Shown here: in pieces, positions 14,627 through 40,796 of the stretch | Layout: each line of letters starts with the position of its first letter | How positions within the stretch are numbered: position 1 is the first letter of the stretch | From: Rhodoferax sp. BLA1 | GTDB lineage: Bacteria > Pseudomonadota > Gammaproteobacteria > Burkholderiales > Burkholderiaceae_C | NCBI RefSeq assembly: GCF_013416775.1 | Contig: NZ_SZVI01000001.1 | Coordinates: 186,001-250,000 of the forward strand | Direction of reading: 5' to 3' | DNA: 64,000 nt | Notes under the pieces: model-generated | What the model saw: only the letters and a program-made list of their open reading frames with translations | The model's database searches: none | What the model was told of the DNA's origin: nothing | Position numbers and translations under genes: made by a program

Positions 14627-15026
14627 TCAGGCTGACTTCAGTGTCCTGCGGTACTGCATGGCCTCGGCCACATGGGTCACCTGGGTGCTGTGTGCACCGG
14701 CCAGATCGGCAATGGTGCGAGCCACTTTGAGCGCCCGGTGGGTGCTGCGCGCTGACCAGCCCAGACGGGTGGCGGCCACGTTCAAAAACTTGGCGGCAGC
14801 CTCGTCCAACAGCACAAACTGGTCGATCTCCTGCCCCTGCAAGGCCTGGTTGGGCTTGCCCTGGCGGGCCATGGCGCGTTCACGTGCGGCCATACAACGG
14901 GCACGCACCACCGCGCTGGCCTCCCCCGGCGGCGCCTGCATCAGCTCGTTGGACGTCACGGCAGGCACCTCCACATGCAGGTCAATGCGGTCCACCAGCG
15001 GGCCACTGAGTTTGCCCTGGTAACGC
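14627..15026 (-). pseudogene. comM: comM 3' part, cut off by the transposon
   Basis: The C-terminal 130 or so residues of ComM/YifB (Mg-chelatase-like AAA+ helicase, branch migration during natural transformation) are encoded here: RYQGKLSGPLVDRIDLHVEVP through RTIADLAG and the stop at 14627. The conserved sequence begins exactly at the transposon edge; upstream residues (MYFENLQ) come from transposon sequence. The missing N-terminal part lies 24.6 kb away at 39656-40796. Joining the two at the shared AACGC gives QVAR-YQGK in frame and a protein of about 511 residues, the family's usual size. Confidence 0.93.
15022..15026. repeat. Target site duplication AACGC, left copy
   Basis: AACGC lies immediately outside the left transposon end and is repeated at 39656-39660 outside the right end. 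Five base pairs is the duplication length of Tn7-family elements, and this position in comM matches the known insertion site of AbaR/Tn6022 elements. Confidence 0.92.
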
Positions 15027-15037
15027 TGTAGGTTTTC
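15027..15037 (+). repeat. Transposon left terminal inverted repeat
   Basis: TGTAGGTTTTC is the outermost sequence of the element and pairs with the right end except at the fourth base. A possible inner transposase site, AAAGTTACTG at 15146-15155, resembles the GTTGCTGC repeats of the right end, but this is tentative. Confidence 0.88.
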
Positions 15038-15478
15038 AAAGTACATGAATTGGCATCCTTAACCAAATCAATGACTTACACAACAACGGTGAAACCCCAT
15101 AGTTTTAACAGTTCACAGTAATTGATGTAGAGCCATTTACTGGTCAAAGTTACTGATCTCATAGCCGAGAAACTCAAATAGCCTTTGGCTTATCGAACCT
15201 TTTCCGGAATTAACTTCTTAATTTCAGACTCTGCGCAGAGAGGATCACTTTCTCAGCCTGCTTAATAGCCGAGATCAAATCTAACACACGCTTTGGCGCG
15301 ACCTTGGAGGTGTAACAAAACGGACAAAATCACCGACGAGCATAGCCCAATTCCCCTGACGTTTCGCACTAACTGAGACCTTACCTTGAATGACCGGAAC
15401 CGGGGAAAATGTAGTTCGGATCTGCAGCGTTTGCAGACATACAAGTGCGTTCTCCACTGGGGATATAGTTCTTAGCAA
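15038..15478. other. Left-end region of the transposon, non-coding
   Basis: This is 441 bp of fairly AT-rich sequence between the terminal repeat and the first gene. It should contain the inner TnsB-binding sites. I see no supported gene; short frames on the minus strand have no credible start or family resemblance. Confidence 0.5.
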
Positions 15479-15775
15479 ATGAAACCAATGTCGAAGCTTG
15501 TCGGTTATCTTGCTGTAGGCACAATGACGGCGGTGAATGCCATTGTCTTTGGATTCTTCTCGTTGTTCGCGGTGCGCGGTGATGGCGGGCCTCAATTCAT
15601 TTCGACCGTCTGGATATTCGGATTCATTTGGGTGGCATTTTTTGCGGCGTGGGGATTTAGCCTAGTTGTGCGAGGCGAGCCACAGAAGGGGCTGAACGCA
15701 ACGGCGCGCGCCCTCCCTATCATTTTTGGTTTGGCCCTAGCTTGGGGCGTAATCGCTTCATTCGTTGGAAAGTAG
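15479..15775 (+). CDS. Small membrane protein with three predicted helices
   Basis: This 98-residue protein is not recognised by name. Hydrophobic segments lie near residues 8-30, 42-64 and 76-96, with a short polar loop between each. A second ATG at 15488 (MSKLVGYLAVG) would give a more usual start before the first helix; neither has a strong ribosome site. It is the only rightward gene in the left arm of the transposon. A coding role is supported by the clean alternation of helices and loops over the whole length. Confidence 0.55.
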   Translation: MKPMSKLVGYLAVGTMTAVNAIVFGFFSLFAVRGDGGPQFISTVWIFGFIWVAFFAAWGFSLVVRGEPQKGLNATARALPIIFGLALAWGVIASFVGK

Positions 15776-16159
15776 CGTCAAGCCCCTCTTTGAATATCCA
15801 ACTCGTTGGTTGGCACGACCGTCCAGGCGCGGACTGCTGCTGTGCGCAAGTGCGTGGACGTCGGTCAAATCGAACGCTGTGACCGCATTGAAGAACGCCT
15901 TATGTCCGCTTCCAGCCTATTGCAGTAGTAGAAACAGGTACTCCAATTCTCAGTCCGGGTGTCACCAACATCACTTTCTGTGACTGTTTCTGGGCTACAA
16001 CAATCTTTTTGCGGGTGCTCATCGACCATCTTCCAGAGGAATCGCCCCATGTCTGAAGATGGCATCTATAAAGCTGGGGCACATTACGAAATTCAATCCG
16101 GAGTGCCATTTGCACGAGAACGATCTTGAATGAGTCCATCAAGAGCGGCTTCATGGATC
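15776..16159. other. Spacer without a gene I can assign
   Basis: Minus-strand frames at 15900-16154 and 15865-16065 are open but give low-complexity or cysteine-rich peptides with no recognisable family, and they overlap each other. They may be remnants of a gene downstream of the HAD phosphatase. I make no call. Confidence 0.35.
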
Positions 16160-16603
16160 TCAAAATCGCTTTACCAGCATGTCGCGCAGCGGCCCCGTTT
16201 GCGTCGTCTGGAAGCCCTGCACGGTGTCAGTTAAAAACAAGTTCGGGCAATTGGGTTGAAACCACGATGGGCGGTCGTCTATGGCGAGCCATGGCGTACC
16301 TGGTGGGCGATTGGTCGCCAGCCAGGCCATGCACTCACGCTCTCGCACGAATGCAGGCGCTAGTGCCTGGTCCCAAAGGTTGGGCGTGACACCGATCACG
16401 CGGCTTTGCATGTCTTGGGAGAAAAACTCCCGCATATCCTCAAGCCCATGATATTCCCGCCAACTGCTGCTGATGACGATATGGACGCCTTGCAGTTCGC
16501 GCTCGCGCAAAACCGCCTCGATCAGATGCAACTGGCAAAAGACGTTTTCATCACCACAGGGTTGCGGGTGCGTGACACCATCGAAGTCAAGAAACAGGAT
16601 CAT
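16160..16603 (-). CDS. HAD-like phosphatase, first of two in the left cargo operon
   Basis: This 147-residue protein starts with the HAD motif I box (MILFLDFDGVTHP), giving the nucleophile and acid/base aspartates. Motif II is likely ISSSWRE near residue 45, and a late AIDDRPSW supplies motif III/IV acids. It resembles the small HAD domain found attached to RNA-repair proteins. I chose the ATG at 16603, directly before motif I, because the longer reading frame would run into the preceding small gene. It is the last gene of a leftward operon containing a second HAD protein, a DEDD exonuclease and a metallophosphoesterase. The substrate is unknown; a phosphorylated nucleotide or RNA end is a guess from the neighbours. 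Confidence 0.75.
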   Translation of the reverse strand: MILFLDFDGVTHPQPCGDENVFCQLHLIEAVLRERELQGVHIVISSSWREYHGLEDMREFFSQDMQSRVIGVTPNLWDQALAPAFVRERECMAWLATNRPPGTPWLAIDDRPSWFQPNCPNLFLTDTVQGFQTTQTGPLRDMLVKRF

Positions 16604-16640
16604 CGCCGGGCAGTCCAATGGGTCGAGCTGGTCGCCTGCC

Positions 16641-16850
16641 TCAAAAAACACCACGTAGCTTTAATTGCAATCGGGTCCATTCATCAAAGAGATCACACCA
16701 TTGCCAGGTGCTTTGTCCTGTCTCTGTATCTAGTGACTCGATCCACGAGTGGCCTTCATCCCGGTCGGGCTTCTCTGGGCTTCGGGACGCCAGCAATGCT
16801 TTGGTGACATTTGCCAGAAGTTCCGAATCTGTCAATGCACGCATGGTCAT
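16641..16850 (-). CDS. Small hypothetical protein in the HAD/exonuclease operon
   Basis: This 69-residue acidic, tryptophan-containing protein has no family that I recognise. The ATG overlaps the exonuclease stop codon as ATGA, and a strong ribosome site (AGGAGG on the minus strand, around 16855-16862) lies at the right distance, which argues for real translation. A second ATG two codons later is possible. The next gene starts 37 nt downstream. It could be an accessory subunit of the operon's enzymes; nothing in the sequence proves this. Confidence 0.55.
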   Translation of the reverse strand: MTMRALTDSELLANVTKALLASRSPEKPDRDEGHSWIESLDTETGQSTWQWCDLFDEWTRLQLKLRGVF

Positions 16851-17356
16851 TGAATCCTCCTGATTGGTGCCATAAACTGATCCCAGGCTTGGTAGCCTGC
16901 CCTAAGTGCCCGTGCGTCGGCCAGCGCATGGTGTGGGGGCCAGTCCTGGGTGTAGGTGAAATTTAGCGCCTTCTCAAAAACAGGGTGCGTGATGGTGTGG
17001 CTGTCCAGGTGGCGTTTGTCGCCAATGTTGGGCGGCGGTTTCTGGTGAGCCGCGTCCAGCAGGGCGGACGCCAAGAGCAACCAGTCACCGCCAAAATCAT
17101 AAACAAGCGTGACCGGTTCCGGCAAGTCGTTAAACCATGCGTGCAGCCGGTTGGTGAGCTGTCTGCGGTCGCAAGCTGCGCCAGGTACACGGTGCAGCAC
17201 TGGCAAGACTTCTTTGCGCACAAATTCGCTGCACGCGTCCCGGTGATAGTCAGTGCGTTCGGCGTAAAACTCGCGGCCATCCTCACCCACAAGTGCAATG
17301 CTGATGAGGTCGGGGCGGTCGAATTGGGTGAATTCGGTATCGAGAAAAATTAGCAT
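16847..17356 (-). CDS. 3'-5' exonuclease-like protein, DEDDh type
   Basis: This is a 169-residue protein. The first motif LDTEFTQF near residue 5 supplies the paired metal-binding acids (D and E). A middle VYDFGGDW near residue 85 gives the third, and HHALADARALRAGY near residue 140 matches the Hx4D last motif of DEDDh exonucleases. The short size fits small 3'-exoribonuclease-like proteins. The start overlaps the metallophosphoesterase stop by 7 nt and the end overlaps the next gene by 4 nt, so translation is coupled. RNA or DNA as substrate cannot be told from sequence. Confidence 0.8.
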   Translation of the reverse strand: MLIFLDTEFTQFDRPDLISIALVGEDGREFYAERTDYHRDACSEFVRKEVLPVLHRVPGAACDRRQLTNRLHAWFNDLPEPVTLVYDFGGDWLLLASALLDAAHQKPPPNIGDKRHLDSHTITHPVFEKALNFTYTQDWPPHHALADARALRAGYQAWDQFMAPIRRIQ

Positions 17357-18057
17357 GGCGGTTCCGGCACAGTATCGAGTTCGCGAGCACGAACCACCTG
17401 CCCGGTCATGTCGGCAATCCCGCGCAGGCCGACGCCAACGGCGTCGAAACCAAGCCGGGCGCGTTCTGTGCTGTAGTCAAGCTGCTCGTGGTGGTGACCG
17501 TGGAATGTTGTTCTCACGCCCAAGCGGCGGGCCAGCTCGTCAATGGCGGCAAAACCATGTGGGTGTGCGCTGGGGGCCTCGTGCGTGACCAGGATGTCGG
17601 CACGCTGCTTTTTCAAGTCCTCGTAATCGACCGGGAAGATGGTGCTACGGTGCTTGAGTGGCAAACCGCCGCGCCAAAGGTTGCCCTTACCGCATTGGGC
17701 CAGATACTGTTGCGGGGTGTCAAAACGTGCCGGTGCCGGGGGGGTCCACACTTTGCCGCGAAACACGCCACCCAATCCTGCAACGCGCAGGCCAGCAATT
17801 TCGACCACTCGGCCATGCAAGTTCCGGTCGGCAAGGTCAGACCCAAACAGGTGATCGTGGTCGGCTTCGGAATCGGTGTCATGGTTGCCGTGGATGAACC
17901 AGAGTTCGGTCATGGCCAGGATCGGTGCCAGCTCAATCTCCAGGGGCCTTTGCGGTTGCAGGTCGCCCAAAAGGATGACGGCAGCAGGCCGGTACTCCTG
18001 CACCGCCGCGATGATGTGCTCGAATTGGCCATGCGGGTCGCCGCAGAAGAGGATCAT
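17350..18057 (-). CDS. Calcineurin-like metallophosphoesterase
   Basis: This 235-residue protein carries the ordered metal-binding motifs of the family: GDPHG near residue 6 (D-x-H), GDLQPQ near 31, GNHD near 57, THEAP near 155 and GHHHE near 187. It could hydrolyse a phosphodiester in a nucleotide or nucleic acid. The ATG overlaps the upstream gene's stop (ATGA), and its own end overlaps the exonuclease start. This places two HAD phosphatases, one phosphodiesterase and one exonuclease under a single control. Confidence 0.85.
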   Translation of the reverse strand: MILFCGDPHGQFEHIIAAVQEYRPAAVILLGDLQPQRPLEIELAPILAMTELWFIHGNHDTDSEADHDHLFGSDLADRNLHGRVVEIAGLRVAGLGGVFRGKVWTPPAPARFDTPQQYLAQCGKGNLWRGGLPLKHRSTIFPVDYEDLKKQRADILVTHEAPSAHPHGFAAIDELARRLGVRTTFHGHHHEQLDYSTERARLGFDAVGVGLRGIADMTGQVVRARELDTVPEPPC

Positions 18058-18488
18058 GGCACCCGCCGTCGAAGGCTTAAAACTCGGGCCTCCGCTTGGG
18101 CGACGGCATCACGCACTGCTTGAGTTTGGGTGGTAGGCGCGGCCTTGCCTGCCCGCCAGTAAAGTCGCAACCCGCCAAATTTCTCTTTGATCTGAAAGCA
18201 CCCCGGCAGATCATCAATAGCTACGCCACCGGTTACCATTTCATTGAGTGCCGATTCAATAGCGGTGACCGCATCTAGCACGATTTCAAGCCAGACATCC
18301 GGGCACTCTATGCCCCAAGTGTGGATGGGCGGATACCGGCGTTCTTGCACATACTCGGGGAGGCCGAGTTCGGCTCTGAGGGCGTGATCATCCTCCGTGA
18401 ATACATCATCCGGGTCAAAATAGCCCTCTGTTTTGTGCCTGAAGAACAGTGGCGCGGCGTTGAAAATGGTATGGTCTGAGATAGCCAT
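18054..18488 (-). CDS. Hypothetical protein of the left cargo operon
   Basis: This 144-residue soluble protein is not assigned to a family. A conserved-looking core is GIECPDVWLEIVLDAVTAIE near the middle and FQIKEKFGGLRLYW near residue 110. The latter pattern recurs in small uncharacterised bacterial proteins. I chose the ATG at 18488 (MAISDHTIF), 2 nt after the HAD gene's stop region; a longer frame would overlap that gene. The 3' end overlaps the metallophosphoesterase start by 4 nt. Confidence 0.65.
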   Translation of the reverse strand: MAISDHTIFNAAPLFFRHKTEGYFDPDDVFTEDDHALRAELGLPEYVQERRYPPIHTWGIECPDVWLEIVLDAVTAIESALNEMVTGGVAIDDLPGCFQIKEKFGGLRLYWRAGKAAPTTQTQAVRDAVAQAEARVLSLRRRVP

Positions 18489-18490
18489 GC

Positions 18491-19057
18491 CTACCTCCGA
18501 GGGAAAGCTAACATTTGGACGCCAGTGTCGCCTGCAAACTGGCATACTTCTGACTTTCTAAGGACTTCCAAGCGTGCCTCCAGCAGTGCCAGCACGACAG
18601 GATCCGAAAGCCCAGTCTCGCTACGGGTGTGAACCAGCTTGTCCAGGTCGTCGGCGCTCCAGCTTTCCGGCTGATCGTCGATGGCAACCCAATCAGTTAG
18701 CCCAGCGCGGCTCGCGTATCGCTTTATTTGCTGGTAGCGCGTCGCCTCGTCCCACCAGGTGGAGAGACTGCGAAAGCCGTCGTGCTTAAACGACATGGCA
18801 CTGTGCCAGGTAGATCCAACGACACGGGTACGCAATGCCTCTGGCAACCAGCGACGGGCACGCGAAAACGACAACTCCCTTACCCAACTCGTTGATAGTA
18901 CGATTTGCACCTCTGGGAAGTCGGCCAGCGCCTCCACCAGAAGCGGTGCCCACATGAACAACTCACCTTCTGCTTTGAGCGTGGGTCTCCCCTTGACCAA
19001 AAAAGCTGAGTCCGGGTGCAGCACCCCGTCGTAGTCAAGAAATAGGATCACAGCCAT
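18491..19057 (-). CDS. HAD-like phosphatase, second of two in the left cargo operon
   Basis: This 188-residue protein begins MAVILFLDYDGVLHPD, a HAD motif I with both aspartates. LSTSWVREL near residue 60 is a good motif II, and WVAIDDQPESW near 145 provides the late acids. It is related in layout to the phosphatase at 16160-16603 but clearly different in sequence, so the operon has two distinct HAD enzymes. I chose the ATG at 19057 because the open frame upstream lacks homologous sequence and overlaps another small gene by 10 nt. Confidence 0.75.
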   Translation of the reverse strand: MAVILFLDYDGVLHPDSAFLVKGRPTLKAEGELFMWAPLLVEALADFPEVQIVLSTSWVRELSFSRARRWLPEALRTRVVGSTWHSAMSFKHDGFRSLSTWWDEATRYQQIKRYASRAGLTDWVAIDDQPESWSADDLDKLVHTRSETGLSDPVVLALLEARLEVLRKSEVCQFAGDTGVQMLAFPRR

Positions 19058-19239
19058 TTTTCGGCAGACAAGTTGCTCGCCAGTGAGCCCTTGGACATCC
19101 CATCGGCCAGACCACCAGCACGCGTTCGAATTGTGCTCAACAGGATGTCCACCAGCAGAGCGGTCCCACGTCTTGCCGTACACCACCACGCAATCGAGTA
19201 GCCGCCATCGCAGTCCAAAATCATGAGAAATTTGCTCAT
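19048..19239 (-). CDS. Small hypothetical protein upstream of the HAD gene
   Basis: This is a 63-residue frame starting MSKFLMILDCDGG and ending 10 nt inside the HAD gene. It has no recognised family. Interestingly, the start FLMILDCDGG looks like another HAD motif I, so it could be a decayed or truncated HAD copy. Coding is plausible because of the overlap with the next gene, but the evidence is thin. Confidence 0.35.
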   Translation of the reverse strand: MSKFLMILDCDGGYSIAWWCTARRGTALLVDILLSTIRTRAGGLADGMSKGSLASNLSAEKWL

Positions 19240-19337
19240 TTAACGAGCAGGGCCTTTCCGCAAATAGCACTTTCGCCGCCCACGCGATCGTTTGCGCATG
19301 GCTGGAGAATTGGAAACAATACCAACATATTTTGAAT

Positions 19338-20162
19338 TCATCGTAGAACCCACTCGCCGTGCGCTTTGATTTCGTCATACATCGCATCAGGTGCCAGGTC
19401 CAGCTCTCCCGGCCACGTCACAACACCAGTATCCAAACGCACCTGATTGAAGAACGCCGGGTCGTTCAAGACCTCGAAAACGCCGGTCAGGTGGGTAGGT
19501 TCAAACCTAACCATGCCTTGCACCCCGTCGGCAAAGCGTACCTGCAAGCTCAAGTTCCCTATCACCTGAACCTCCACCACGCGCCAAGCTTCCCTCAGGT
19601 GACTTTCCAGGGGCGCAATGCGCAAGTTGCTTTCATTGACGAATTCAATTGCTTCGTCAATCGAGGCGATTGAGCCATCAGTGGCACTTTTGGCTTCATC
19701 CGCCAACAAGTCTATTGCCGTGACATTGGTTTTTGACTTGCCCCGGTGTTTATGCATTTTTGCTCTAGCAAGGTTCCTGTGGAACTCTGCGCTCGCGGCA
19801 TCGGCGACGGCTTTGTTCATGTCGTCATTACTGACGGTCCGGCAGACTTGTTGCGCAAAAAGGCCTTGGAGAACTGGCTCGACACCCGGAACGGGGATTG
19901 CAATCTCTGCATCCAGCATTTGCGCATGCAAAGCGTCAAGGGTGCCGAGTCCAAGTAGCAGCAGTGCTTGGCTACTGCTGATAACACCATAAGAATATAG
20001 ATCCAGAACTTCAAGGCGTTCGTAGTCCGGACTTCCAAACTCCCTTCCAACCGGGGTCACATTCAACCATTCGCAATCCTCAGCGGACCGCCAAATAAAT
20101 GCTGAGTGAAATCGTCCGTGAAAAAGATTCAGGACGCGCCGCTTGTTTGATCTTGAACTCAT
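19338..20162 (-). CDS. DUF2442-containing protein with an unknown N-terminal part
   Basis: This is a 274-residue protein. The C-terminal 80 residues (LQVRFADGVQGMVRF to DAMYDEIKAHGEWVL) have the pattern of DUF2442: a small beta-rich domain with a late W-x-G-x-x-D-L-A-P-D motif. The first 190 residues are not recognised and include an acidic, serine-rich middle. DUF2442 proteins are often small and stand alone beside DUF4160 genes in toxin-antitoxin-like pairs, so this long fused form is unusual. The start overlaps the stop of the small gene upstream by 4 nt. Confidence 0.65.
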   Translation of the reverse strand: MSSRSNKRRVLNLFHGRFHSAFIWRSAEDCEWLNVTPVGREFGSPDYERLEVLDLYSYGVISSSQALLLLGLGTLDALHAQMLDAEIAIPVPGVEPVLQGLFAQQVCRTVSNDDMNKAVADAASAEFHRNLARAKMHKHRGKSKTNVTAIDLLADEAKSATDGSIASIDEAIEFVNESNLRIAPLESHLREAWRVVEVQVIGNLSLQVRFADGVQGMVRFEPTHLTGVFEVLNDPAFFNQVRLDTGVVTWPGELDLAPDAMYDEIKAHGEWVLR

Positions 20163-20404: not shown

Positions 20405-22168
20405 TTACTCGTCGACATTCCCTGCATCTGAATTGAAAGACTGCATTTCGTTGAAGAGGGACATGCTCTGTGGGCATTTCTCAAGTTGTGAGGTAAGACC
20501 TCCATCTTTGACAAGCAGCCGTACCCCGGCCCCCCAGTCATTTACACCTGCCCGGCGCAAAAGGTCTGCAAATCGAGCAGCCAATCCATTTCCACCACTA
20601 GGGCGACCAAAGCGAGTAATAAAATACCGATTGGTCTTCTGCTGGTATAGACAAAATCTGTGCCTCACGCCATTTGCATAGAGGTCTCCCCACCGGCAAA
20701 AAATCTGTGCCAATCGAATTTCATGGGTGCTGATAAGTTGTCTGCTGGTTTCGTCTCGTACTACAAGCGCCTGCCATGTTCGATTCAGCGCAAGGCCATC
20801 ACTCAAAGTCAATTCACAAACTTTAGTGAAACTCAAGCCCAGCCATGTCGCCGCCGCGATACAACAGGCATCTCGTATCGCACTGGCTTTTGCCTCCCTG
20901 GCAGAGGTTGTAGTCTGAATATCCACTTCCAGCATGCCCATAATCGTGTAGATGGTGTCGTGGGACAGCGCCTTCAGACGTGCTGGCAGCAACGCATCCA
21001 ATGCCTTACCTTCCGTCACGCCCAGCTGGCGTTTCAACGCGATTTTAGAAATCGGCTTTGTTGATTTGGACATCGCGGCTTTTGCTGCCCGGACCTCCTC
21101 TTGATTAACCTGGTATCGCTTGCCGTAGAGTGATTCGTTGACTACCGCATATAGCCAGTAAGGCAACCCGAACTCCATGGCGCTAAAGTCGCAGGCTGTG
21201 ATGCCCGCCGCTTTCACTGTCCCAACGAAATTTGCGGGCCAGTCACGGGTTAACCAGGCAGCCATACGCAAGAGGTCATGCCGGACGGAAAGCGAATGCC
21301 GCGCGAAATCGACTCGTGGGGACTGTGCAATCATCCGCAAAGTGGGAAGATATGTCGATGGTACTTTCGACACGGCAAAACGCGTCGCGCGACGAGGGAT
21401 GCAGAGTACGAAAAACAGCGCACGTAAGCCCGCCCACCACAGCCGGGGGTCAATCACTTTCAGCGGCAGGTGTTCTTGAAGAACAGCCAACGGCGCCATT
21501 TCAATCCATTCGGATCGGGAATGGCGATAGGTTCTTTCCCTGCGTTCAGCATAGGCCGTGCCGCAGGATTCGCATTGGTCCAACGGTGTCTTGCGTTGAT
21601 GTGCCAAAACGATTGGTTCCCCACACACGGGGCACCGGTCGATCAACGCATGGTGGTGTACTGGGCAACGCACCGCCGTCGCCAATCGCCAAAATTGGCG
21701 CCAATAAGGGACTGCGTCTTCGCGAAGGCAGGTAGTACAGATGGCGTGGCGTGCACCCTTGCGTTTACTGGCTGGTGGGACGTAATTGAGAACCCATGGA
21801 TGCCCCATCAGACTTTCTTCTACACCAAGATACTGGAGGTTTTTCGTTAAGGTGAGGCTTGCCACTTCCTGCCGTGGCAACAGCGTCAAGTTGGAGAGCA
21901 CGGCGGTAGCAATATGGCAAGTGGGTCCAAGATCAAGGCGTGAGAAATCCTGCAGCTTCGTCCCTCCACTGCGAAGCAAATTCCATGCATCCAAGTACCC
22001 GTTGGCCTGGGCCAGTCGCCATACCCAGGATGCCATGGATTCGCATAAAGTGGGGTCATTGCCCTCAATGGGATCGACGCAGAAGAGTAGTGATGAAAGA
22101 CCCAAGCCAGTCTCGAAAGGCAAACCAGCATCGTCCAGTTCAGCGGCAAGGATATTGACAGGCATCAT
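20405..22168 (-). CDS. tniE: TniQ/TnsD-like target-selection protein, second copy
   Basis: This 587-residue protein is of the TniQ family. The zinc-binding core is visible near residues 140-195: CTTCLREDAVPYW, CPVHHHALIDRC, then CPVCGEPI, followed by CESC. The long C-terminal extension is typical of TnsD, which reads a fixed chromosomal sequence, here presumably comM. It starts with an ATGA overlap to the first TniQ gene and corresponds in position to tniE of AbaR/Tn6022. Which of the two TniQ proteins binds comM cannot be decided from sequence. Confidence 0.85.
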   Translation of the reverse strand: MMPVNILAAELDDAGLPFETGLGLSSLLFCVDPIEGNDPTLCESMASWVWRLAQANGYLDAWNLLRSGGTKLQDFSRLDLGPTCHIATAVLSNLTLLPRQEVASLTLTKNLQYLGVEESLMGHPWVLNYVPPASKRKGARHAICTTCLREDAVPYWRQFWRLATAVRCPVHHHALIDRCPVCGEPIVLAHQRKTPLDQCESCGTAYAERRERTYRHSRSEWIEMAPLAVLQEHLPLKVIDPRLWWAGLRALFFVLCIPRRATRFAVSKVPSTYLPTLRMIAQSPRVDFARHSLSVRHDLLRMAAWLTRDWPANFVGTVKAAGITACDFSAMEFGLPYWLYAVVNESLYGKRYQVNQEEVRAAKAAMSKSTKPISKIALKRQLGVTEGKALDALLPARLKALSHDTIYTIMGMLEVDIQTTTSAREAKASAIRDACCIAAATWLGLSFTKVCELTLSDGLALNRTWQALVVRDETSRQLISTHEIRLAQIFCRWGDLYANGVRHRFCLYQQKTNRYFITRFGRPSGGNGLAARFADLLRRAGVNDWGAGVRLLVKDGGLTSQLEKCPQSMSLFNEMQSFNSDAGNVDE

Positions 22169-32526: not shown

Positions 32527-32656
32527 AAACGGAAATCACTGGGCAGGCTGATCTGACGGCTGATGACTTGACAACGTGGGCAGGTCTATTCACCCAAATG
32601 CGTCTTCAGGCCACTTGGCGCTAATTACCATTAACGTTTTCCAACTGATTCACCTC

Positions 32657-33400: not shown

Positions 33401-33554
33401 GAGGCTGGTGGAATCAGCATGTTGTTCGCTATCGCCCTCATTACGGGCTTCGCAGCGGAAGCGGGCATTCAGTGACATCCCCCAATTGGGGGGTGTTCAG
33501 GTCACACACACAGACAGTCACAATGCAGCGAAGGCAGTTTTTTATTTTTCCCGA

Positions 33555-33722
33555 ATGAAATTTGCAACTTTGAAGTCGGTTGGTCATAGCATTGCGGATT
33601 CCCTTGCAAATGGAATCTGCTTACTGATTGGGTACACGAAGTTGACATTTTTAGCGAAGCTGCTGATTCCGACTCGGGCAATATCGAGATTGATTTTGGT
33701 TTCGTCATTTTTGTTCATATAA
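33555..33722 (+). pseudogene. Frameshifted fragment of a small conserved protein
   Basis: From ATG 33555 the frame reads MKFATLKSVGHSIADSLANG and then, near 33632, continues in another frame as VHEVDIFSEAADSDSGNIEIDF. The two parts joined match the pattern of a family of short uncharacterised proteins (SVGHNIADSLASG, then a D-I/V-F-x-E-A-A box and a V/I-D-F end). The C-terminal part is missing. The upstream reading frame from 33408 is not related. Confidence 0.4.
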
Positions 33723-33739
33723 GAGAAAAACAAAGCGCA

Positions 33740-34231: not shown

Positions 34232-34559
34232 TGAATTTTTGCCTGGTTGTTTTGGTTGGGATCATCATAATTTAGCGGTCGCCGCCAAAATAGCCAAATT
34301 TCGTCGCCGCCGCCAAATCTCGCCATTTTTTGGCGCTTGGTCAACCCAGGTAAGTAACCCTTACGAAATGCTGAGATGCCCTGCGTTATCGGCGAGCCTT
34401 TAAAGTCGTAAACACAACAACTTTTTGTCTTGTGCAGCAGGTGGCTGTGGTGCCTGCTGTGGGCCAGTTGCTGTCAGTGGTGAGTGACAGCTTTGGGGAA
34501 GCAAATTTAGTGGTTCCGCGTACACTGGTTGTTGCGACTAAGTTTCCATAGTAGGCTGA
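34232..34559. other. Intergenic region with CGCCGCCAAA repeats
   Basis: CGCCGCCAAA occurs twice (around 34271 and 34308), and a hairpin CGCCATTTTTTGGCG follows (around 34319). These could be binding sites or a promoter region for the kinase operon. An open frame from about 34375 to 34551 lacks a start and a family. No gene is called. Confidence 0.35.
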
Positions 34560-34850
34560 TTGCGGGCCATCGCCCAAAACGCGGCGATGACCGCTGCTGT
34601 TGCAGTTCGTCATTGGCCTACTCAGTTTAATCTATGCCGCATTGCTGGCTGGCTGACAAGGGCCCTTTTGATGCAACCCGGACGGCTCGCAAAGAAAATG
34701 CTACGGTTAGGTCTCCGATTGGCATGCGCGCGCGGAGATACGAAGGCATTGCGCGATACTGTGGCCTATGGTTGCCGACTATGGTCAAGAACATTGCGCA
34801 AAAGCGCGTCGGATGGCAGGGCCATTGACCAGATTGTTGCCGGTGAGTAA
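34560..34850 (+). CDS. Small hypothetical protein ahead of the kinase operon
   Basis: This is a 96-residue basic protein with a hydrophobic middle (NLCRIAGWLTRALLMQPGRLA) and a helical end (DTKALRDTVAYGCRLWSR). Its stop lies 3 nt before the kinase GTG, and GGTGAG across its last codons could serve as the kinase's ribosome site. That placement suggests coupled translation, but the frame has no recognised family and overlapping frames are also open. I treat it as a possible first gene of the operon. Confidence 0.4.
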   Translation: MRAIAQNAAMTAAVAVRHWPTQFNLCRIAGWLTRALLMQPGRLAKKMLRLGLRLACARGDTKALRDTVAYGCRLWSRTLRKSASDGRAIDQIVAGE

Positions 34851-34853
34851 ACC

Positions 34854-36257
34854 GTGAGTTCGCGCAGATATCGCTGGCTAAAGCGGGTCATCGTGAAGGC
34901 GGTACGCAGGTTCCTATCGTGGATTGAGGAGCAGAATGTGGCGGTGATTGACGTGAGAAGCTTGGTTGGCCAAGAGGTGCAGGGTTGGGCCTTGTGGGAA
35001 GTCTTGGGAAAAGGCGCAGACGGGATCGTATACGTGGGCGAGCGCGCCGGCGAGCAGGCAGCTGTGAAAGTGTTTTTTCCTGAGCAATTGGAGCGGTATG
35101 GTTTTGAGCAACAGCAGCAACGACTCGAACTCCAGCTTCAACTCAAAGGTAGGAAGCATCACCCCAGCCTTGTAGAGATATTTGATGGTGGTGTTGATGC
35201 AGAACTACAGACACTTTATTTGGTAATGGAGTACGTTCCCGGTCAGTCTCTTGACAAAATACTGGACAAACTGCCCTACGAAGCCATAGCACCTCTAGTC
35301 AATCAACTTGCCGGTGCGGCGCAGTTTCTGGAGGAGCGAGATCTGGTTCATCGCGATATCAAGCCAGCGAACATAGTGATTAGTGATGACTTCAAGACGC
35401 TAACGCTGCTTGACCTTGGAGTTGTACTGCGTCCACCAGATGCCATGGATGACCGCATATCAGGCGACGAGTTTGTTGCATCGGTTCGCTACAGCCCCCG
35501 TGAGTTTGTGTGGCGGGACGAACTGGGAACGGACCGAGACGCGTGGCGCGCGGTCACTTTCTACCAAATCGGCGCAACGCTACATGACATGATCATGCGT
35601 TATCCGATCTTTCGTGGCCGTGACACGCCGCCGGCCAAGCTTTATGAGGCGGTCAAACTTCACACGCCGGAGATTTCTTCGTCGGATTGCGAACCGTGGC
35701 TGGTGAAGTTGGCGGAGGCGTGCCTAATCAAGAGTTGGCGCGAACGCCTGAAGCATCTAGACTGGGCAAGCTTCTCAGGGCCAGCTCCAGCGGGAGACAG
35801 GTCTCAACTGCGCGATGTTCGGCTGAAGCAGATTCAGGCGGATGAACGGCGACTCCAGGTACAGGAGACGCTAAGCGCAATGCCGCCTAGGGCTTCTCGT
35901 GCACAGGAGCTTTGGAAGCTTCAGAACGGCGTCTTCCTTGAACTGCGTCAGTTCTTAATGAGCGACCCCGTTTTCCCAACCTTCAGTGGAAGCCATTCCG
36001 CCTCCGGTGGTGTCTACGAGCTTCTGTTTTCTTTTGATAAAAACGCTGATTTGCTGTTTTACAAGGTTGTCACAGTCAGCATCGTTCTCCGCATTGCTAG
36101 CGACACCGAGGCGGCCACGGATATTGGCTTTACTGGCAAGATGGATTCACAGGAATTATTCGCGGCGAGTTGGCGTGAGATGTTCTCTGTCGAAAGGGCG
36201 GCAGAGCTTTGTGAGCAGGCGTTTGCTCAAACAGTGGCAAAGGCACTTGAAAACTGA
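34854..36257 (+). CDS. Serine/threonine protein kinase-like protein
   Basis: This is a 467-residue cytosolic protein. The kinase domain (about 45-315) has a glycine loop LGKGADGIVYVG, the ATP lysine in AAVKVFF near residue 70, the catalytic loop LVHRDIKPAN at about 163-172, and a metal-binding LLDLGVV in place of DFG. An activation-segment SVRYSPREFV precedes the substrate lobe. The last 150 residues are unique and may sense or bind a partner. A GTG start is used. The helicase gene begins 20 nt after the stop, and the four genes to 39234 form one operon at the right end of the transposon. Kinases of this size are a recurrent part of phage-defence loci. Confidence 0.82.
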   Translation: MSSRRYRWLKRVIVKAVRRFLSWIEEQNVAVIDVRSLVGQEVQGWALWEVLGKGADGIVYVGERAGEQAAVKVFFPEQLERYGFEQQQQRLELQLQLKGRKHHPSLVEIFDGGVDAELQTLYLVMEYVPGQSLDKILDKLPYEAIAPLVNQLAGAAQFLEERDLVHRDIKPANIVISDDFKTLTLLDLGVVLRPPDAMDDRISGDEFVASVRYSPREFVWRDELGTDRDAWRAVTFYQIGATLHDMIMRYPIFRGRDTPPAKLYEAVKLHTPEISSSDCEPWLVKLAEACLIKSWRERLKHLDWASFSGPAPAGDRSQLRDVRLKQIQADERRLQVQETLSAMPPRASRAQELWKLQNGVFLELRQFLMSDPVFPTFSGSHSASGGVYELLFSFDKNADLLFYKVVTVSIVLRIASDTEAATDIGFTGKMDSQELFAASWREMFSVERAAELCEQAFAQTVAKALEN

Positions 36258-36277
36258 GAACCCCAAGGATCGCGCTC

Positions 36278-37387
36278 ATGAATCACACGTTCTGGATTAA
36301 CGATAAAGACCTCGACAAAGAGCAGGGGCGAGCCGTTCAAAATATCGGCATTGACGAGAGTTTTCTCATCCGTGGCCCAGCTGGGTCTGGGAAGACCAAT
36401 ATTCTTTTGTTGCGCGCCAAGAGGCTGGTCTTGAAGAAGCTGAGCAACCTCAAGGTGATAGTCTTCACATCGAGCCTAAGAGACTTTGTAAGGCTGGGAT
36501 GCGCGCAATATGGAGTACCACCGGAAATTGCGACGACGGGAATTCGCTTGTTTCGAGATTTGCTTGATGAATATGGTGTCTCATACTCGCTAACAAAAGA
36601 TTTTGAAGTAGATCGCAACCTATTGGCTGGCAAGGCCAAAGCATTGCTGGACTCACACGGCATCGAGAACACTTTTGATTCTTTGCTTGTCGATGAAGCG
36701 CAGGACTATACCGATACAGAGTTGCTGGTACTTCGAAAATTGACTAAGAGGTTGGTTCTGGTTGCAGACACGCGACAGTCAATTTACAAGATGACACACA
36801 CGCCCGGCGTACTGGAACAACTGGTTGGCGATAACGTTGTGAACTTGAAGTATCACTACAGGAGTGGTCTGCATATCTGCAAAGTTGCCGACGGGATATT
36901 GAAGGACTCGAAGAACTTTCCAGCAATTGCTGCTGAGTCAAAGTACGACGAAAAATCGAAACCTTCATCTGTCGTTATTGTTCGATGTGATGGCTTTGAT
37001 GAGCAAATCGCAGCGATCCTCAAGAAGTTGGGTCCGCAACTTAACCTTTACCCCACGGAACACATTGGAGTGCTCTTTCCGAAGAAGGAGCAGTGCGTGG
37101 CCTTCGAGAAGTTTCTAGCTGACTCCTCACTGGTTGACAAAGGGCGTATATGGTCGGACACGTTGCATGGGGGGAAGGGGTGGGAGTTTCGCGCTGTACA
37201 CATTGGCGGATGTGAAGCGCTTTACAGGATGGGCGCGACACAGAAGAGATTGGTCTATACAGGGGTCCTTCGGGCGAAAACATCGGTAAGCCTCTACTAC
37301 ACGGGGAGTGTTCCAGGCTACCTAGACTCCGCAGTTGCATTGTTGTCGCCGCCCCCTGACGACACCGAACTTAGTGATCTATTTTAA
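36278..37387 (+). CDS. Compact UvrD-like superfamily 1 helicase
   Basis: This is a 369-residue ATPase/helicase. The motifs run in order: Walker A GPAGSGKT near residues 33-40, Ia VIVFTSSLRDF, Walker B LLVDEAQD near 137, III LVLVADTRQSIY, IV LKYHYRSG, V DTLHGGKGWEFRAVHI and VI VYTGVLRAKTSV. At this length it must lack the large 1B/2B insertions of UvrD and Rep, so it resembles the short helicases found in defence operons such as Gabija and others. It lies 20 nt after the kinase and 15 nt before the next gene. Confidence 0.85.
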   Translation: MNHTFWINDKDLDKEQGRAVQNIGIDESFLIRGPAGSGKTNILLLRAKRLVLKKLSNLKVIVFTSSLRDFVRLGCAQYGVPPEIATTGIRLFRDLLDEYGVSYSLTKDFEVDRNLLAGKAKALLDSHGIENTFDSLLVDEAQDYTDTELLVLRKLTKRLVLVADTRQSIYKMTHTPGVLEQLVGDNVVNLKYHYRSGLHICKVADGILKDSKNFPAIAAESKYDEKSKPSSVVIVRCDGFDEQIAAILKKLGPQLNLYPTEHIGVLFPKKEQCVAFEKFLADSSLVDKGRIWSDTLHGGKGWEFRAVHIGGCEALYRMGATQKRLVYTGVLRAKTSVSLYYTGSVPGYLDSAVALLSPPPDDTELSDLF

Positions 37388-37402
37388 CGAGTTGGCAATT
37401 TG

Positions 37403-38728
37403 ATGCGTATAACCAAGCTCACCACCTCAGCGATCTTCGGCGCTGACCTAAAGTCTGCTCAAATTCCCGAAGATCTATTTTCTAAGAAGGGCCGACAAGC
37501 GCTTCACGAGTGTTTTTGGTCTGAATATGGAGATGGGCTGGAGCTGCCCGTGGCGCTTCGGCCAGCATTAGGTGATGCTGAATCGCTTTTTGCGGACGCG
37601 GCGACGTACTTTTCCGCGTTTGTTCCGATCACAGCGTACCTTCGTGTTTTGGACAATGATTCATTAAAGGAACCATTGCACCGATTTAAAGAGATATCTC
37701 CCGATCTAAGTACTCACCAACTTAGATCAGCGATTGGATTGGCCATAGGCGAGCTTTTGACAGCCTCACTGAGGAACTCCAAGTCGCCCACTGAGAGTGC
37801 CAGCTATGGAGCGTCAAGATGGACACTTTCCTTCGCGGTATATCGATCGGCAGCATTGCACGGAGACTTGTCGTCCGATGTAGTTGTAGAGCGGTGGTTG
37901 CGCATTCGGGAAATTATGAAAATGGACTCCCCAATGGAGCACGCCGCTTCGATCTCGTGGATAAGAACTCTGCAGGGTAAAGGCGCTTCACCGCAATTGG
38001 GAGACGGGCCGCAGGCTGCTATAGCGGAGACAGTCTCCGGGCGTCAATCTCTAAGCTGGCTTGGAGGCAAGTTGGCGGAGTCACTCGGGGGTATCCGTCG
38101 CGAGGTTGAAGCTATGCGCGGTCCCTTCGATGACAGGTCGGTGGCATTCAGCCAGTTGGTGCAAGCCGTGACAACCAAGCTCCCAAACGGGGAGCTTGGC
38201 GCAATTTGCATTGCATTCTTCTGCAATGAAATACTTCCGGGTTCTCTGTCCCACTTCAGGTTGTTGGCGCCCTTGATTTCCGCCTATCCCACTGTGGTGA
38301 TTTGGTATGGCATGTTTGCAAGCCTATCGGAAGGATTTGACTGGCGGGAGGCATTCTCTGGATTCGGCCTCAAGATGGCTCGTGATCTACTTCAGCCTTT
38401 CTCGCCGGGGCGACGGCCAACCTGCGATATCGCATTTGCGGAGTTAGAAGTTCTATCTCGCCTGCCGCTGAAGGCAGATGTCATGAAGCCGACGCACCCC
38501 AGGGCCTGTTCGGTAGAGCTGTTCCCGGGAGTGGATGTTTTCTTCAGGTTCGGCAATGATGACGATTCGAGAGCGCAGGCAGGCGATGAGAGACAGCTAA
38601 TGGAGGACCATGCGAGGCGGGATGGACTATTGAGACGTCTGCTGCACGAAGCACTGGAATTGGTGCCAGAGCGGAAGTTGCCAACGCCATCTCCCGCACT
38701 GAACCGCTCTAAACGTTTGCGTGGTTAA
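37403..38728 (+). CDS. Hypothetical protein of the kinase-helicase operon
   Basis: This 441-residue, largely helical protein is not recognised. It has no membrane segment, no signal peptide and no obvious nucleotide-binding loop. Conserved-looking parts are SASYGASRWTLSFAVYRSAA near the middle, a segment LAPLISAYPTVVIWYGMFA near residue 300, and a polar, charged C-terminus. I chose the ATG at 37403; a TTG directly before it is less likely. Tight spacing (15 and 14 nt) makes it part of the same operon. It could be the sensor or scaffold of the system. Confidence 0.7.
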   Translation: MRITKLTTSAIFGADLKSAQIPEDLFSKKGRQALHECFWSEYGDGLELPVALRPALGDAESLFADAATYFSAFVPITAYLRVLDNDSLKEPLHRFKEISPDLSTHQLRSAIGLAIGELLTASLRNSKSPTESASYGASRWTLSFAVYRSAALHGDLSSDVVVERWLRIREIMKMDSPMEHAASISWIRTLQGKGASPQLGDGPQAAIAETVSGRQSLSWLGGKLAESLGGIRREVEAMRGPFDDRSVAFSQLVQAVTTKLPNGELGAICIAFFCNEILPGSLSHFRLLAPLISAYPTVVIWYGMFASLSEGFDWREAFSGFGLKMARDLLQPFSPGRRPTCDIAFAELEVLSRLPLKADVMKPTHPRACSVELFPGVDVFFRFGNDDDSRAQAGDERQLMEDHARRDGLLRRLLHEALELVPERKLPTPSPALNRSKRLRG

Positions 38729-38742
38729 TTGGACCGGTATAT

Positions 38743-39234
38743 ATGGAGTCCTTTGAAACGCTCACGTTCTTGCGAGGAATCGCCACTGTTATCTCTCATC
38801 CTTTCGTTGCGCCGACACGCAAGGACCGCAGGCCGAGGGATCTAGCATTAGATTTGCATGAAGCTGCGGACGATTGGTTCCTCAAGCGCTTCGGAGTCAG
38901 ATTCCGAAGTCAGTCGATATTTGTTACGAGCCTGCGTGTCGTCGCATCAGGTTATGGCCAGCAGACGGTCCGCATCCTACCGCTGGGCAACTACCGATAC
39001 TGCTGGTCAAGGTCCACCTCGGACTTGCTCTATATTCTGAAAGGCGCAACCGTGGGACAGGTTCAAGGACTATTAGATGCTGCACAGTATGTGGATGTGG
39101 ATTTGGCAGCCGCTCACCGCGAGGGGCACGAGGTGATGTTGCATTGCGACGACTACGTCGCGATTCCGTTCGAGAACTGTCCCGATCCGGTTTCGGTAAC
39201 TACAGCCAATGGAGCCAAATTGATCATCTTTTAG
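38743..39234 (+). CDS. Hypothetical protein, possible ADP-ribosyltransferase-like effector
   Basis: This is a 163-residue protein and the last gene of the operon. The stretch RFGVRFRSQSIFVTSLRVVA, followed by GYGQQTVRILPLGNYRYCWS, recalls the beta-strand order of small ADP-ribosyltransferase-like toxins: an Arg strand, a Ser/Thr-Ser strand, then an aromatic YG box. I cannot identify the catalytic Glu with certainty, and the resemblance is by eye only. If correct it would be the toxic arm of a defence module; otherwise it is an uncharacterised protein. The ATG lies 14 nt after the preceding stop. Confidence 0.6.
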   Translation: MESFETLTFLRGIATVISHPFVAPTRKDRRPRDLALDLHEAADDWFLKRFGVRFRSQSIFVTSLRVVASGYGQQTVRILPLGNYRYCWSRSTSDLLYILKGATVGQVQGLLDAAQYVDVDLAAAHREGHEVMLHCDDYVAIPFENCPDPVSVTTANGAKLIIF

Positions 39235-39644
39235 AGGCTGGCTTGTACTGTTGATTTGCGGGCAATGTGATTTGTTGCCCCCCCAAAATACTTCGCCTGA
39301 ATAGATGAATGTTTGCTTACGCTCGATTAGATTGAATGAGGGCCTCAGCTATGGGTAGGTCAGCACCAGTGAGTTAAGAGACACCGAGAGACCCGGATCC
39401 GCCACTGGCGAGTGGCAGCTTTCATGCATTGAAACTGATCGTTCGGAATTCCACTTTCGGTCGGTAGCTGAGGTATCCAGAACGCTGAGATTCTGTTGGC
39501 TTTGGTTGAATATTTGGTGCCCAGGCCACTTGCTCATTAGCACATTGAATACTTGCCACCATTTTTTTCAGGATTTCGTAGCGGAAACTGGCAGCAACTT
39601 CGAATGAACCAGCGCAGCAACTCTGAACAGATGTCACTAATTAC
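39235..39644. other. Right-end region of the transposon with short direct repeats
   Basis: This 410-bp non-coding stretch ends at the terminal repeat. GCAGCAAC occurs at 39591-39598 and 39614-39621, 23 bp apart, a spacing like that of adjacent TnsB-binding sites in Tn7 ends. I see no gene. The minus-strand frame that continues comM into this region is accidental. Confidence 0.55.
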
Positions 39645-39655
39645 GAAAACCAACA
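39645..39655 (-). repeat. Transposon right terminal inverted repeat
   Basis: On the minus strand the end reads TGTTGGTTTTC, equal to the left end TGTAGGTTTTC at 10 of 11 positions. It is directly followed by the AACGC duplication. Confidence 0.88.
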
Positions 39656-39660
39656 AACGC
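39656..39660. repeat. Target site duplication AACGC, right copy
   Basis: This is the second copy of the five bases found at 15022-15026. It forms part of the comM codons for Ala-Arg just before the break. Confidence 0.92.
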
Positions 39661-40796
39661 GCCACCTGGTCAGGGGTGCAACGGCAGGCCTTCTGGTTGG
39701 AGCCCAGGTAACCACAGGGGCAGGGGTTCATCGCACCAATCAGCTGGAAACGCGCCGGAAACTCGCTGCGCCGCGCTGCGCGCGAGATGGTGATGGTGCC
39801 GGTCTCCAGCGGCTCACGCAGGGCCTCCAAAGCGGCTCGTGGAAACTCCGGAAATTCGTCCAGGAACAAGACGCCATGATGCGCCAGCGAGATTTCGCCG
39901 GGGCGCGGTGGTGATCCGCCACCCACCAGCGCCACTGCGCTGGCCGTGTGATGTGGCTGGCAGGTAGGCCGACGCGCCCAGTTGGCCAGCGAAAAGCTCC
40001 CACCCAGGCTGGCGACGGCGGCACTTTGCAGCGCTTCATCGGTGCTCATGGGTGGCAGCAGGCCCACAAAACGCTGCGCCAACATCGATTTGCCCGCGCC
40101 CGGAGGCCCCATCAGCAGCAGGCTGTGGCCACCTGCGGCGGCAATCTCCAGCGCCCGTTTGGCGCCCAACTGGCCTCTGACATCGGCCAGATCGGGGTAA
40201 TCGACCACTTTTACAAAAGGCTCAGAATCGACCCTGACCCAACCATCACCTGGCTCGGCCGCTCTGTTTTCTGAAGCAGCTGGCAAGAAGTTCTGTACCA
40301 CATCGAGCAGATGCCGGGCACGGTACACCTGGGCACTGGGCACCAGCGCGGCCTCTTCGGCGCTGTCTGGCGGCAACACCAGCTGGGTGACAACACCGCT
40401 GCCATGCAAGGCCAGGCTCATGGCCAGCGCACCCCGCACCGGGCGCAATTCGCCCGACAAGGACAACTCACCGGCAAATTCCCAGCCCGTCAAAGCAGCT
40501 GCATCAATCTGGCCACTGGCGCCCAGAATACCCAGCGCAATCGGTAAATCAAACCGGCCCGAGTCTTTGGGCAAGTCGGCCGGCGCCAGGTTGACCACAA
40601 TTTTCTTGTTGTTGGGAAACTCCAGGCCCGAGTTCTGGATGGCCGAGCGCACCCGCTCACGCGCTTCTTTCACCTCGACATCGGCCAAACCCACCAAAGT
40701 GAAACTTGGTAAACCGTTGGCCAGGTGGACTTCGACGGTGACAGCCGCCGCATCCAGGCCCAGCAGGGCCCGGCTTTGCACCAAAGACAGACTCAT
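39656..40796 (-). pseudogene. comM: comM 5' part, cut off by the transposon
   Basis: The first 380 residues of ComM/YifB lie here: [17 protein letters not shown], the Lon-protease-like S5 fold, Walker [11 protein letters not shown] near residue 222, Walker [11 protein letters not shown], and the [10 protein letters not shown] zinc-like region up to CTPDQVAR, where the transposon begins. Downstream codons read from transposon sequence add about 40 unrelated residues before a stop. ComM is a hexameric helicase that extends recombination during natural transformation; the cell should be deficient in it unless the element leaves. The ATG at 40796 has CAGGAGG just upstream. Confidence 0.94.

What the first reader, a model, noticed from the sequence alone, without database searches (positions are those of the whole stretch)
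14627..40796. comM is split by a 24.6-kb Tn7-like island with exact borders
Seen directly: comM pieces at 14627-15026 and 39656-40796 join in frame (QVAR-YQGK) when 15027-39655 plus one AACGC is removed. The ends TGTAGGTTTTC and TGTTGGTTTTC are inverted repeats. Known: AbaR/Tn6022-type elements target comM with a 5-bp duplication. The same target used in a betaproteobacterium, with a variant duplication and unrelated cargo, is notable.
Basis: partly seen in the sequence, partly recalled or inferred. Interest (0 to 1): 0.82.

Follow-up and report, generated by a model that had tools for sequence, protein, structure and literature searches.

The report
Tn7-like island at second comM site
A jumping DNA island has cut a bacterium's DNA-uptake gene comM in two at a spot different from the one such islands are known to use, and a relative of the same island sits at almost the same spot in another genus, which suggests that one of its proteins homes in on this second spot.

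Summary
In detail: a 24,629-bp Tn7-like island (15027-39655) with imperfect terminal repeats and a 5-bp duplication (AACGC) splits an otherwise undamaged comM. The reading needs correction. comM insertions by Tn7-like elements are common in this order, so the host is not the news. The position is: the duplication ends at comM nt 1141, 259 bp downstream of a Tn6022-type insertion in a same-genus relative (nt 882, GCGGT = ACCGC) and about 180 bp past the Walker B motif that TnsF reads. No TnsF gene was found. The island carries two tniQ genes; its TnsB and TnsC are nearest to elements outside comM, whereas TniQ-2 resembles long TniQs of comM elements, tail included; that family's tail resembles XerD. 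In Pelomonas sp. Root1217 a TniQ-2 homologue (37%) lies in a 27.4-kb island at comM nt 1144, with its own duplication, the same orientation and the same spacing of R-end sites. I propose TniQ-2 as a one-protein selector for a second comM region (inferred, not tested). tnsA and tnsB are each split between two frames; two flank genes of this assembly show the same fault. New variant of a known kind.

The parts
14627..15026 (-). 3' part of comM (ends with one copy of the duplication)
15022..15026 (.). target-site duplication AACGC, left copy
15027..15037 (.). left terminal repeat TGTAGGTTTTC (L end)
15035..15155 (.). three TnsB-like sites of the L end, at offsets 8, 85 and 116 (15035-15047, 15112-15124, 15143-15155); sparse
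   Evidence: motif read off these ends, so partly circular; three or more such sites also occur in 10 of 220 interior 200-bp windows
15900..20162 (-). left cargo: two HAD_SAK_2 proteins (16160-16654, 18491-19387), Rv2179c-like exonuclease (below cut-off), metallophosphoesterase, unknown 163-aa protein, DUF2442 protein
20405..22168 (-). tniQ-2, 587 aa: TniQ domain (aa 43-175) plus a C-terminal part homologous to that of long TniQ proteins of other comM elements; proposed target selector
22165..23724 (-). tniQ-1, 519 aa: TniQ domain (aa 31-166), C-terminal part without recognised relative
23721..24668 (-). tnsC (TniB/AAA+), 315 aa
24646..26744 (-). tnsB in two overlapping frames: 25383-26744 (rve-type core, Pfam below cut-off; matches TnsB of many elements) and 24646-25386 (Mu-transpos_C)
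26704..27421 (-). tnsA in two overlapping frames: 27077-27421 and 26704-27174 (Pfam TnsA-like E 0.065, below cut-off); both match stretches just upstream of tnsB in related elements
27736..39234 (.). right cargo: SRAP, flavin reductase, S24 peptidase (UmuD-like) and UmuC-like polymerase, NUC-type endonuclease, RDD protein, and a 34854-39234 row of protein kinase, UvrD/GajB-like helicase, unknown 442-aa protein and a 163-aa protein
39592..39647 (.). three TnsB-like sites of the R end, at offsets 8, 28 and 51 from 39655; dense
39645..39655 (.). right terminal repeat TGTTGGTTTTC (R end, read inwards)
39656..39660 (.). target-site duplication AACGC, right copy
39656..40796 (-). 5' part of comM, nt 1-1141

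Best explanation
A Tn7-like transposon (TnsA, TnsB, TnsC, two TniQ proteins) inserted into comM at nt 1137-1141, a second target region distinct from the Walker-B-adjacent Tn6022 site. The most likely mechanism is that TniQ-2, a long TnsD-like TniQ, binds comM DNA upstream of the insertion point (the dense R end faces the comM 5' half) and passes the site to TnsC and the TnsA/TnsB transposase; no separate TnsF or guide RNA is used. The C-terminal part of TniQ-2 belongs to a family whose other members resemble the first half of the XerD catalytic domain, so the selector looks like TniQ fused to a remnant of a tyrosine recombinase. Shown: borders, duplication, genes, position, the second instance in Pelomonas with shared R-end structure and orientation, homology of the TniQ-2 tail. 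Inferred: that TniQ-2 binds DNA and chooses the site, and that the tail is a recombinase remnant.
For: Borders and genes. Position: TSD end nt 1141 against nt 882 for a Tn6022-type element in the same genus. Pelomonas sp. Root1217: TniQ-2 homologue, 37% identity, E 2e-84, inside a 27,434-bp island splitting comM at nt 1144 with its own duplication GGTAG; its R end has TnsB-like sites at offsets 8, 28 and 51 as in the window, the only one of 54,866 positions in that island with all three. Tail homology of TniQ-2/Pelomonas to seven long TniQ proteins of other comM elements: hhalign score 53.5, E 1.1e-7, best of 20 column shuffles 17.6; TniQ-1 tail 11.3. XerD is the top PDB match of the joint tail profile, E 1.6e-5. 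Near the site the best 32-base match of the island has 10 mismatches, as in a reversed control.
Against: Only two instances of this clade were found. The Pelomonas copy has an N-terminally truncated TniQ, and no tnsC match was found in its genome nor tnsB or tnsC in its island, so it is a remnant. The XerD match comes from the other comM proteins: their profile alone gives E 9.1e-6, the TniQ-2/Pelomonas profile alone gives no XerD match, and Foldseek finds nothing significant for either model. A related long TniQ sits in an element next to what I read as metH, so the family is not bound to comM. The TnsB-site motif was read off these ends, and three such sites in 200 bp also occur in 10 of 220 interior windows. 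TniQ-1 could be the selector or share the task. No binding was measured.
Confidence: 0.7

Rival explanations
1. It is a divergent Tn6022/AbaR-family element using the known comM target through a TnsF protein, with a merely shifted insertion point.
For: Same gene, 5-bp duplication, TGT ends, and TniQ-2 scores better against 17 comM elements (53-99 bits) than against 16 elements outside comM (0-52 bits).
Against: 259 bp from the Tn6022-type site; no TnsF match among 259 stop-to-stop frames of the island with a two-sequence TnsF-type profile (that profile found only its own two seeds among the ORFs of the other loci, so its reach is short); TnsC lies outside the clade with the Tn6022-type elements, branch support 97/89.
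Confidence: 0.1
2. TniQ-1, not TniQ-2, selects the comM site, and TniQ-2 serves another route (for example plasmids).
For: Dual TniQ/TnsD loci may divide two routes (PMC10293859, section 11 read); both proteins exceed 500 aa.
Against: The orthologue kept at the same site in Pelomonas is that of TniQ-2 (99/85 support), and only the TniQ-2 tail is homologous to tails of long TniQ proteins of other comM elements.
Confidence: 0.15
3. Chance insertion by an untargeted Tn7-like element that happened to hit comM; the Pelomonas coincidence is unrelated.
For: Two cases only.
Against: Two insertions with different duplications 3 bp apart in two genera, same orientation, homologous TniQ-2, same R-end spacing.
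Confidence: 0.03
4. RNA-guided insertion, as reported for I-B1 CRISPR-associated transposons that also use comM (PMC11406308, passages seen).
For: comM is a reported guide-directed site. Short exact matches between island and comM are a little more frequent than in a reversed control (13-mers 1 against 0, 12-mers 9 against 2), none of those printed lying near the site.
Against: No cas gene among the island proteins searched; no 14-base match between island and comM, and best 32-mers near the site (10 mismatches) equal the reversed control; no repeat array.
Confidence: 0.02

Closest known systems
Tn6022 / AbaR elements with TnsF (PMC10293859: sections 11, 14, 15 and passages read)
   Same: Tn7-like, 5-bp duplication, comM disrupted, dedicated selector of recombinase origin
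   Different: Insertion 259 bp away, no TnsF found, two long TniQ proteins instead of short TniQ plus TnsF, TnsC from another clade
Long-TniQ elements at comM nt ~882 (L070, L071, L072, L074, L075, L120, L122, L137; found here)
   Same: Long TniQ with homologous C-terminal part; comM target
   Different: Other site, opposite facing of the tnsA-side end, one tniQ in the stretches read; TnsB of the window scores 68-129 bits against 17 comM elements and 130-204 against 16 outside comM
Pelomonas sp. Root1217 comM island (NZ_LMDC01000012.1, found here)
   Same: TniQ-2 homologue, site 3 bp away, orientation, R-end site spacing
   Different: TniQ truncated, no tnsB or tnsC found, other cargo
TniQ-TnsF fusion reported as a single case (SCZ64694; PMC10293859 section 11)
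   Same: TniQ fused to a recombinase-derived part
   Different: That fusion is said to lack the catalytic domain; here the resemblance is to the first half of the catalytic domain. Its sequence was not compared
Tsy transposons (PMC10293859, passages)
   Same: comM target
   Different: Tyrosine-recombinase transposition without Tn7 components

Membership tests
Tn7-like transposons | TnsB DDE transposase, TnsC AAA+ and TniQ in one operon | tested here: met
   Pfam above cut-off for TniQ twice, TniB and Mu-transpos_C, below cut-off for rve; all on one strand, 20405-26744
Tn7-like transposons | TnsA endonuclease | tested here: inconclusive
   Pieces match stretches just upstream of tnsB in related elements over 42-146 aa; Pfam below cut-off; gene lies in two frames
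Tn7-like transposons | 5-bp target duplication | tested here: met
Tn7-like transposons | asymmetric ends with several TnsB sites | tested here: inconclusive
   sites at 8/85/116 and 8/28/51, motif read off the ends; R-end spacing repeated in Pelomonas
Tn6022/AbaR | insertion at the Walker-B-adjacent comM site (nt ~882) | tested here: not met
   nt 1141
Tn6022/AbaR | TnsF target selector next to tniQ | tested here: not met
   no match in the island with a profile of two TnsF-type proteins from the same genus; these were taken for TnsF by place, length and cysteine motifs, and the profile's reach is short
Tn6022/AbaR | tnsE on the opposite strand | tested here: inconclusive
   no Pfam TnsE match among the island proteins searched; TnsE is very divergent
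Tn6022/AbaR | common ancestry of TnsC | tested here: not met
   tree of 45 TnsC proteins, separating branch 97/89; long branch for the window protein, and one comM element (L190) falls on its side
Dual TniQ-TnsD elements with TnsD-type homing | two TniQ-domain proteins | tested here: met
   both in one clade with Pelomonas, 100/97
Dual TniQ-TnsD elements with TnsD-type homing | direct binding of the long TniQ to the target | not testable with these tools
   needs a binding assay

The most novel reading that the evidence does not exclude
comM is not one attachment site but a gene attacked at three or more separate places (nt 232, 882-898, 1116-1144) by Tn7-like lineages, and some of them, this element included, use a single protein in which TniQ is fused to a remnant of a tyrosine recombinase. 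If so, what is selected is the loss of ComM (poorer removal of the island by natural transformation) rather than one conserved DNA anchor.
Probability: 0.4. Interest if true: 0.75.

Novelty: new variant of a known kind. Interest (0 to 1): 0.58.

Why it matters
It makes testable whether comM is a convenient conserved DNA anchor or a gene worth breaking, because one gene is seen to be hit at different places by different Tn7-like lineages. It also offers a candidate for the fused TniQ-recombinase selector that PMC10293859 (section 15) drew as a late step of selector domestication.

Tried and rejected
Close relatives of TniQ-2 by single sequence: none in genome contigs or viral contigs; with the two-row profile none in viral contigs; in plasmids 220 records matched, none over 80% of the query. 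The profile of TniQ-2 and Pelomonas gave no match near its own score outside the window: best others E 8.4e-26 (G896) among 399 family genomes and 7.6e-25 (G1288) among 369 class genomes, window genome counted in both; G1288 was not followed up. Pfam finds nothing in the TniQ C-terminal parts, E up to 10. hhalign between the TniQ-2 tail and TnsF-type proteins: nothing. Structure: the whole model is poor (pLDDT 55), the tail model fair (pLDDT 70); Foldseek finds TniQ structures only weakly (best E 0.024) and nothing significant for the tail (best E 1.3; XerD domain 5dcf at rank 26, E 6).

Programmed frameshifting of tnsA and tnsB was considered and not pursued: of 25 ORFs of relative G004 that match the window, 3 fall into two frames here, comM (by the island) and two flank genes (59718-61359, 58005-58638), so faults of the assembly are a simpler cause. 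Decay of the element is not excluded.

Composite island: no internal copy of the ends without mismatch. Junction finding failed for G010 and G066.

In notes and the Pelomonas duplication is printed one base too high; correct are 836304-836308 and 863743-863747. For the same reason the Pelomonas L end is shifted by one base and its identity count (23 of 65) is not used.
Full report
WHAT IS THERE. The window holds a comM gene on the minus strand, split at 15026/39656. AACGC stands on both sides (15022-15026, 39656-39660), the island 15027-39655 begins and ends with TGTAGGTTTTC and TGTTGGTTTTC in inverted orientation, and the flanks without the island and one AACGC read as one frame of 511 codons. 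The genome (15 contigs, 4.46 Mb) has no other comM. Of 20 same-genus comM loci looked at, 16 show the site uninterrupted. No tool named the host; a contig of a genome labelled 'same order' (G179:C9) has the length of a Vogesella margarita contig found separately (L164), which fits a betaproteobacterium.

THE ELEMENT. On the minus strand between 27421 and 20405 lie tnsA, tnsB, tnsC, tniQ-1 and tniQ-2. tnsA and tnsB each occupy two overlapping frames. Whether that is decay or assembly is open: of 25 ORFs of the relative G004 that match the window, three are found in two frames, comM itself (the island) and two flank genes. Cargo lies on both sides of the operon: DNA-damage genes (SRAP, UmuD- and UmuC-like), two HAD_SAK_2 proteins, a nuclease and a kinase-helicase row with defence-like matches in PADLOC. 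No resistance gene was seen among the proteins searched.

THE SITE IS NOT THE TN6022 SITE. Mapped on the comM of G004, the duplication ends at nt 1141 in the window and at nt 882 (GCGGT, ends TGTCATTTTC/TGTGACTTTT) in the same-genus genome G006. G006 and G010 carry a TniQ of 363 and 310 aa followed by a 486-aa protein that I take for TnsF by place, length and cysteine motifs (Pfam zinc-ribbon matches below cut-off); it was not compared with the published TnsF. TnsF of Tn6022 needs a 10-bp piece of the Walker B motif (PMC10293859, section 14); the Walker B stretch LFLDEFPEF is nt 928-954 here, about 45 bp from the Tn6022-type site and about 180 bp from this one.

comM IS HIT OFTEN AND AT SEVERAL PLACES. 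Of 12 TniQ-bearing regions fetched from the same order, 9 lie in or against comM (the 12 were chosen from 37 other genomes with a TniQ-2 match among 399). Of the 46 other loci found with the TniQ alignment, 10 show comM pieces, two of them (L121, L164) on contigs of the same length as those of L071 and L075, so probably the same. Junctions with a duplication were mapped for seven elements: Undibacterium sp. TS12 and G894 at nt 232 (CAAGG, 11 of 12 end bases alike; CTTTG, 7 of 12), G006 at 882, G896 at 898 (GCCGG, 10 of 12, ends TAGG), Psychrobacter vallis at 1116 (GTCGC, 12 of 12; the two junctions lie on two contigs), the window at 1141, Pelomonas at 1144. For G010 and G066 my script found none. 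In the 10 elements split near nt 882 the tnsA-side end faces the 3' half of comM, and so it does in Psychrobacter; in the window the dense R end, on the tnsA side, faces the 5' half. An element in G1006 with a 499-aa TniQ (TniQ-2 match over aa 39-550) adjoins what I read, without a family search, as metH, so this TniQ family is not bound to comM.

THE PELOMONAS ISLAND. The only close relative of TniQ-2 found lies in Pelomonas sp. Root1217 (37% identity over aa 81-553, E 2e-84). That genome's comM is split at the same place: island 836309-863742 of NZ_LMDC01000012.1, 27,434 bp, duplication GGTAG, ends TGTGGTGAGCCA and TGTGGGGATCCA (coordinates there are one too high). The duplications differ and lie 3 bp apart, so I take the insertions as independent. 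Its R end carries TnsB-like sites (7 of 10 defined bases each) at offsets 8, 28 and 51, as in the window (motif taken from the window ends), the only one of 54,866 positions with all three, and matches the window's R end at 35 of 65 bases, more than any of 54,526 other placements (at most 31). Three sites within 200 bp are in themselves not rare: 10 of 220 interior windows of the island have three or more; the shared spacing is the point. The Pelomonas TniQ lacks the N-terminal part, no tnsC match was found in the genome and no tnsB or tnsC match in the island. It is thus a remnant of the same kind of element at the same site.

WHO SELECTS THE SITE. TniQ-1, TniQ-2 and the Pelomonas protein form one clade (100/97), TniQ-2 and Pelomonas within it (99/85; bootstrap not fully settled). 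The TniQ-2/Pelomonas tail is homologous to the tails of long TniQ proteins from seven other comM elements (score 53.5 against at most 17.6 in 20 column shuffles); the TniQ-1 tail is not (11.3). The joint tail profile has XerD as its top match among PDB sequences (E 1.6e-5, XerD 129-225), that is, the part with the first catalytic arginine, which is not conserved here, and without the later catalytic residues (residue roles recalled). This rests on the other comM proteins: their profile alone gives E 9.1e-6, the TniQ-2/Pelomonas profile alone gives no XerD match, and Foldseek gives nothing significant. I hold the recombinase origin for likely in the family and transferred to TniQ-2 by homology.

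A MIXED PEDIGREE. The window's TnsB core scores 68-129 bits against 17 comM elements and 130-204 against 16 elements outside comM; TnsC 0-57 against 0-126; TniQ-2 53-99 against 0-52. Five rows of that table are outside these counts: L171 (Pelomonas), L190 (G896, comM nt 898), L191 and L194 (comM near nt 232) and L193 (metH). The two sets were gathered with TniQ-2 and with TnsB as queries, which favours this pattern; but G072, among the best for TnsB, gave no TniQ-2 match. The TnsC tree puts the window outside the clade that holds 17 of the 18 comM rows (97/89); the eighteenth, the dual-TniQ element L190, falls on the window's side; both have long branches. This fits exchange of the selector between elements but does not prove it.

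LITERATURE. Seen: PMC10293859 (sections 11, 14, 15 and passages); passages only of PMC11406308, PMC8649781, PMC11472951, PMC3384475, PMC7253598, PMC8767349 and PMC10322971; PMC7508600 (term search, no match). In print are comM as target of Tn6022 through TnsF and of Tsy (PMC10293859) and of I-B1 CRISPR-associated transposons (PMC11406308), comM interrupted by other kinds of insert (PMC8767349, PMC10322971, PMC11472951; positions within comM not looked up), and lower transformation in strains with inactive comM (PMC11472951). In the searches (listings) I saw no report of a Tn7-like insertion at the 3' comM region or of several comM positions; subscription journals are mostly not held. That the AbaR duplication is ACCGC is recalled; I found it in no paper, only in the G006 element.

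VERDICT. Real, correctly bordered, wrongly equated with the AbaR site. A new variant: a dual-TniQ Tn7-like element at a second comM region, with one independent relative there. The selector role of TniQ-2 is inferred.

Noticed in passing
G000:C12:555621-558304 (L110): A second Tn7-like element in the window's genome (TnsB 31%, TnsC 25% identity), no comM match in the fetched stretch.
   Followed up: partly
window 58005-58638 and 59718-61359: Two ordinary flank genes fall into two frames compared with relative G004, pointing to base-level faults in this assembly.
   Followed up: partly
window 34854-39234: Row of protein kinase (PD-T4-6/MAD6-like), UvrD/GajB-like helicase, unknown 442-aa protein and 163-aa protein at the right end of the island: a possible defence system without a named match.
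   Followed up: partly
L211/L212 (Undibacterium sp. TS12) and L213/L214 (G894): Two elements in different genomes with insertions at exactly comM nt 232, another recurring comM position.
   Followed up: partly
L190, L215, L216 (G896): Another dual-TniQ element (533 and 513 aa) in comM, nt 898, with an island of about 45 kb.
   Followed up: partly
L193 (G1006) about 5900: Element with a 499-aa TniQ related to TniQ-2 next to what looks like a metH gene (read from sequence, no family search).
   Followed up: no
L133 10992-15135 (Psychrobacter vallis): Cargo of the comM element looks like patatin, nucleotidyltransferase and E1-type genes (read from sequence, not searched).
   Followed up: no
G1288:C1:213100-213876 (L217): 690-aa frame with a match to the TniQ-2 profile (E 7.6e-25); its site was not looked at.
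   Followed up: no
G005:C353:12049-13184: comM of a same-genus relative matches in two overlapping pieces; looks like a frame break, not an insertion.
   Followed up: no
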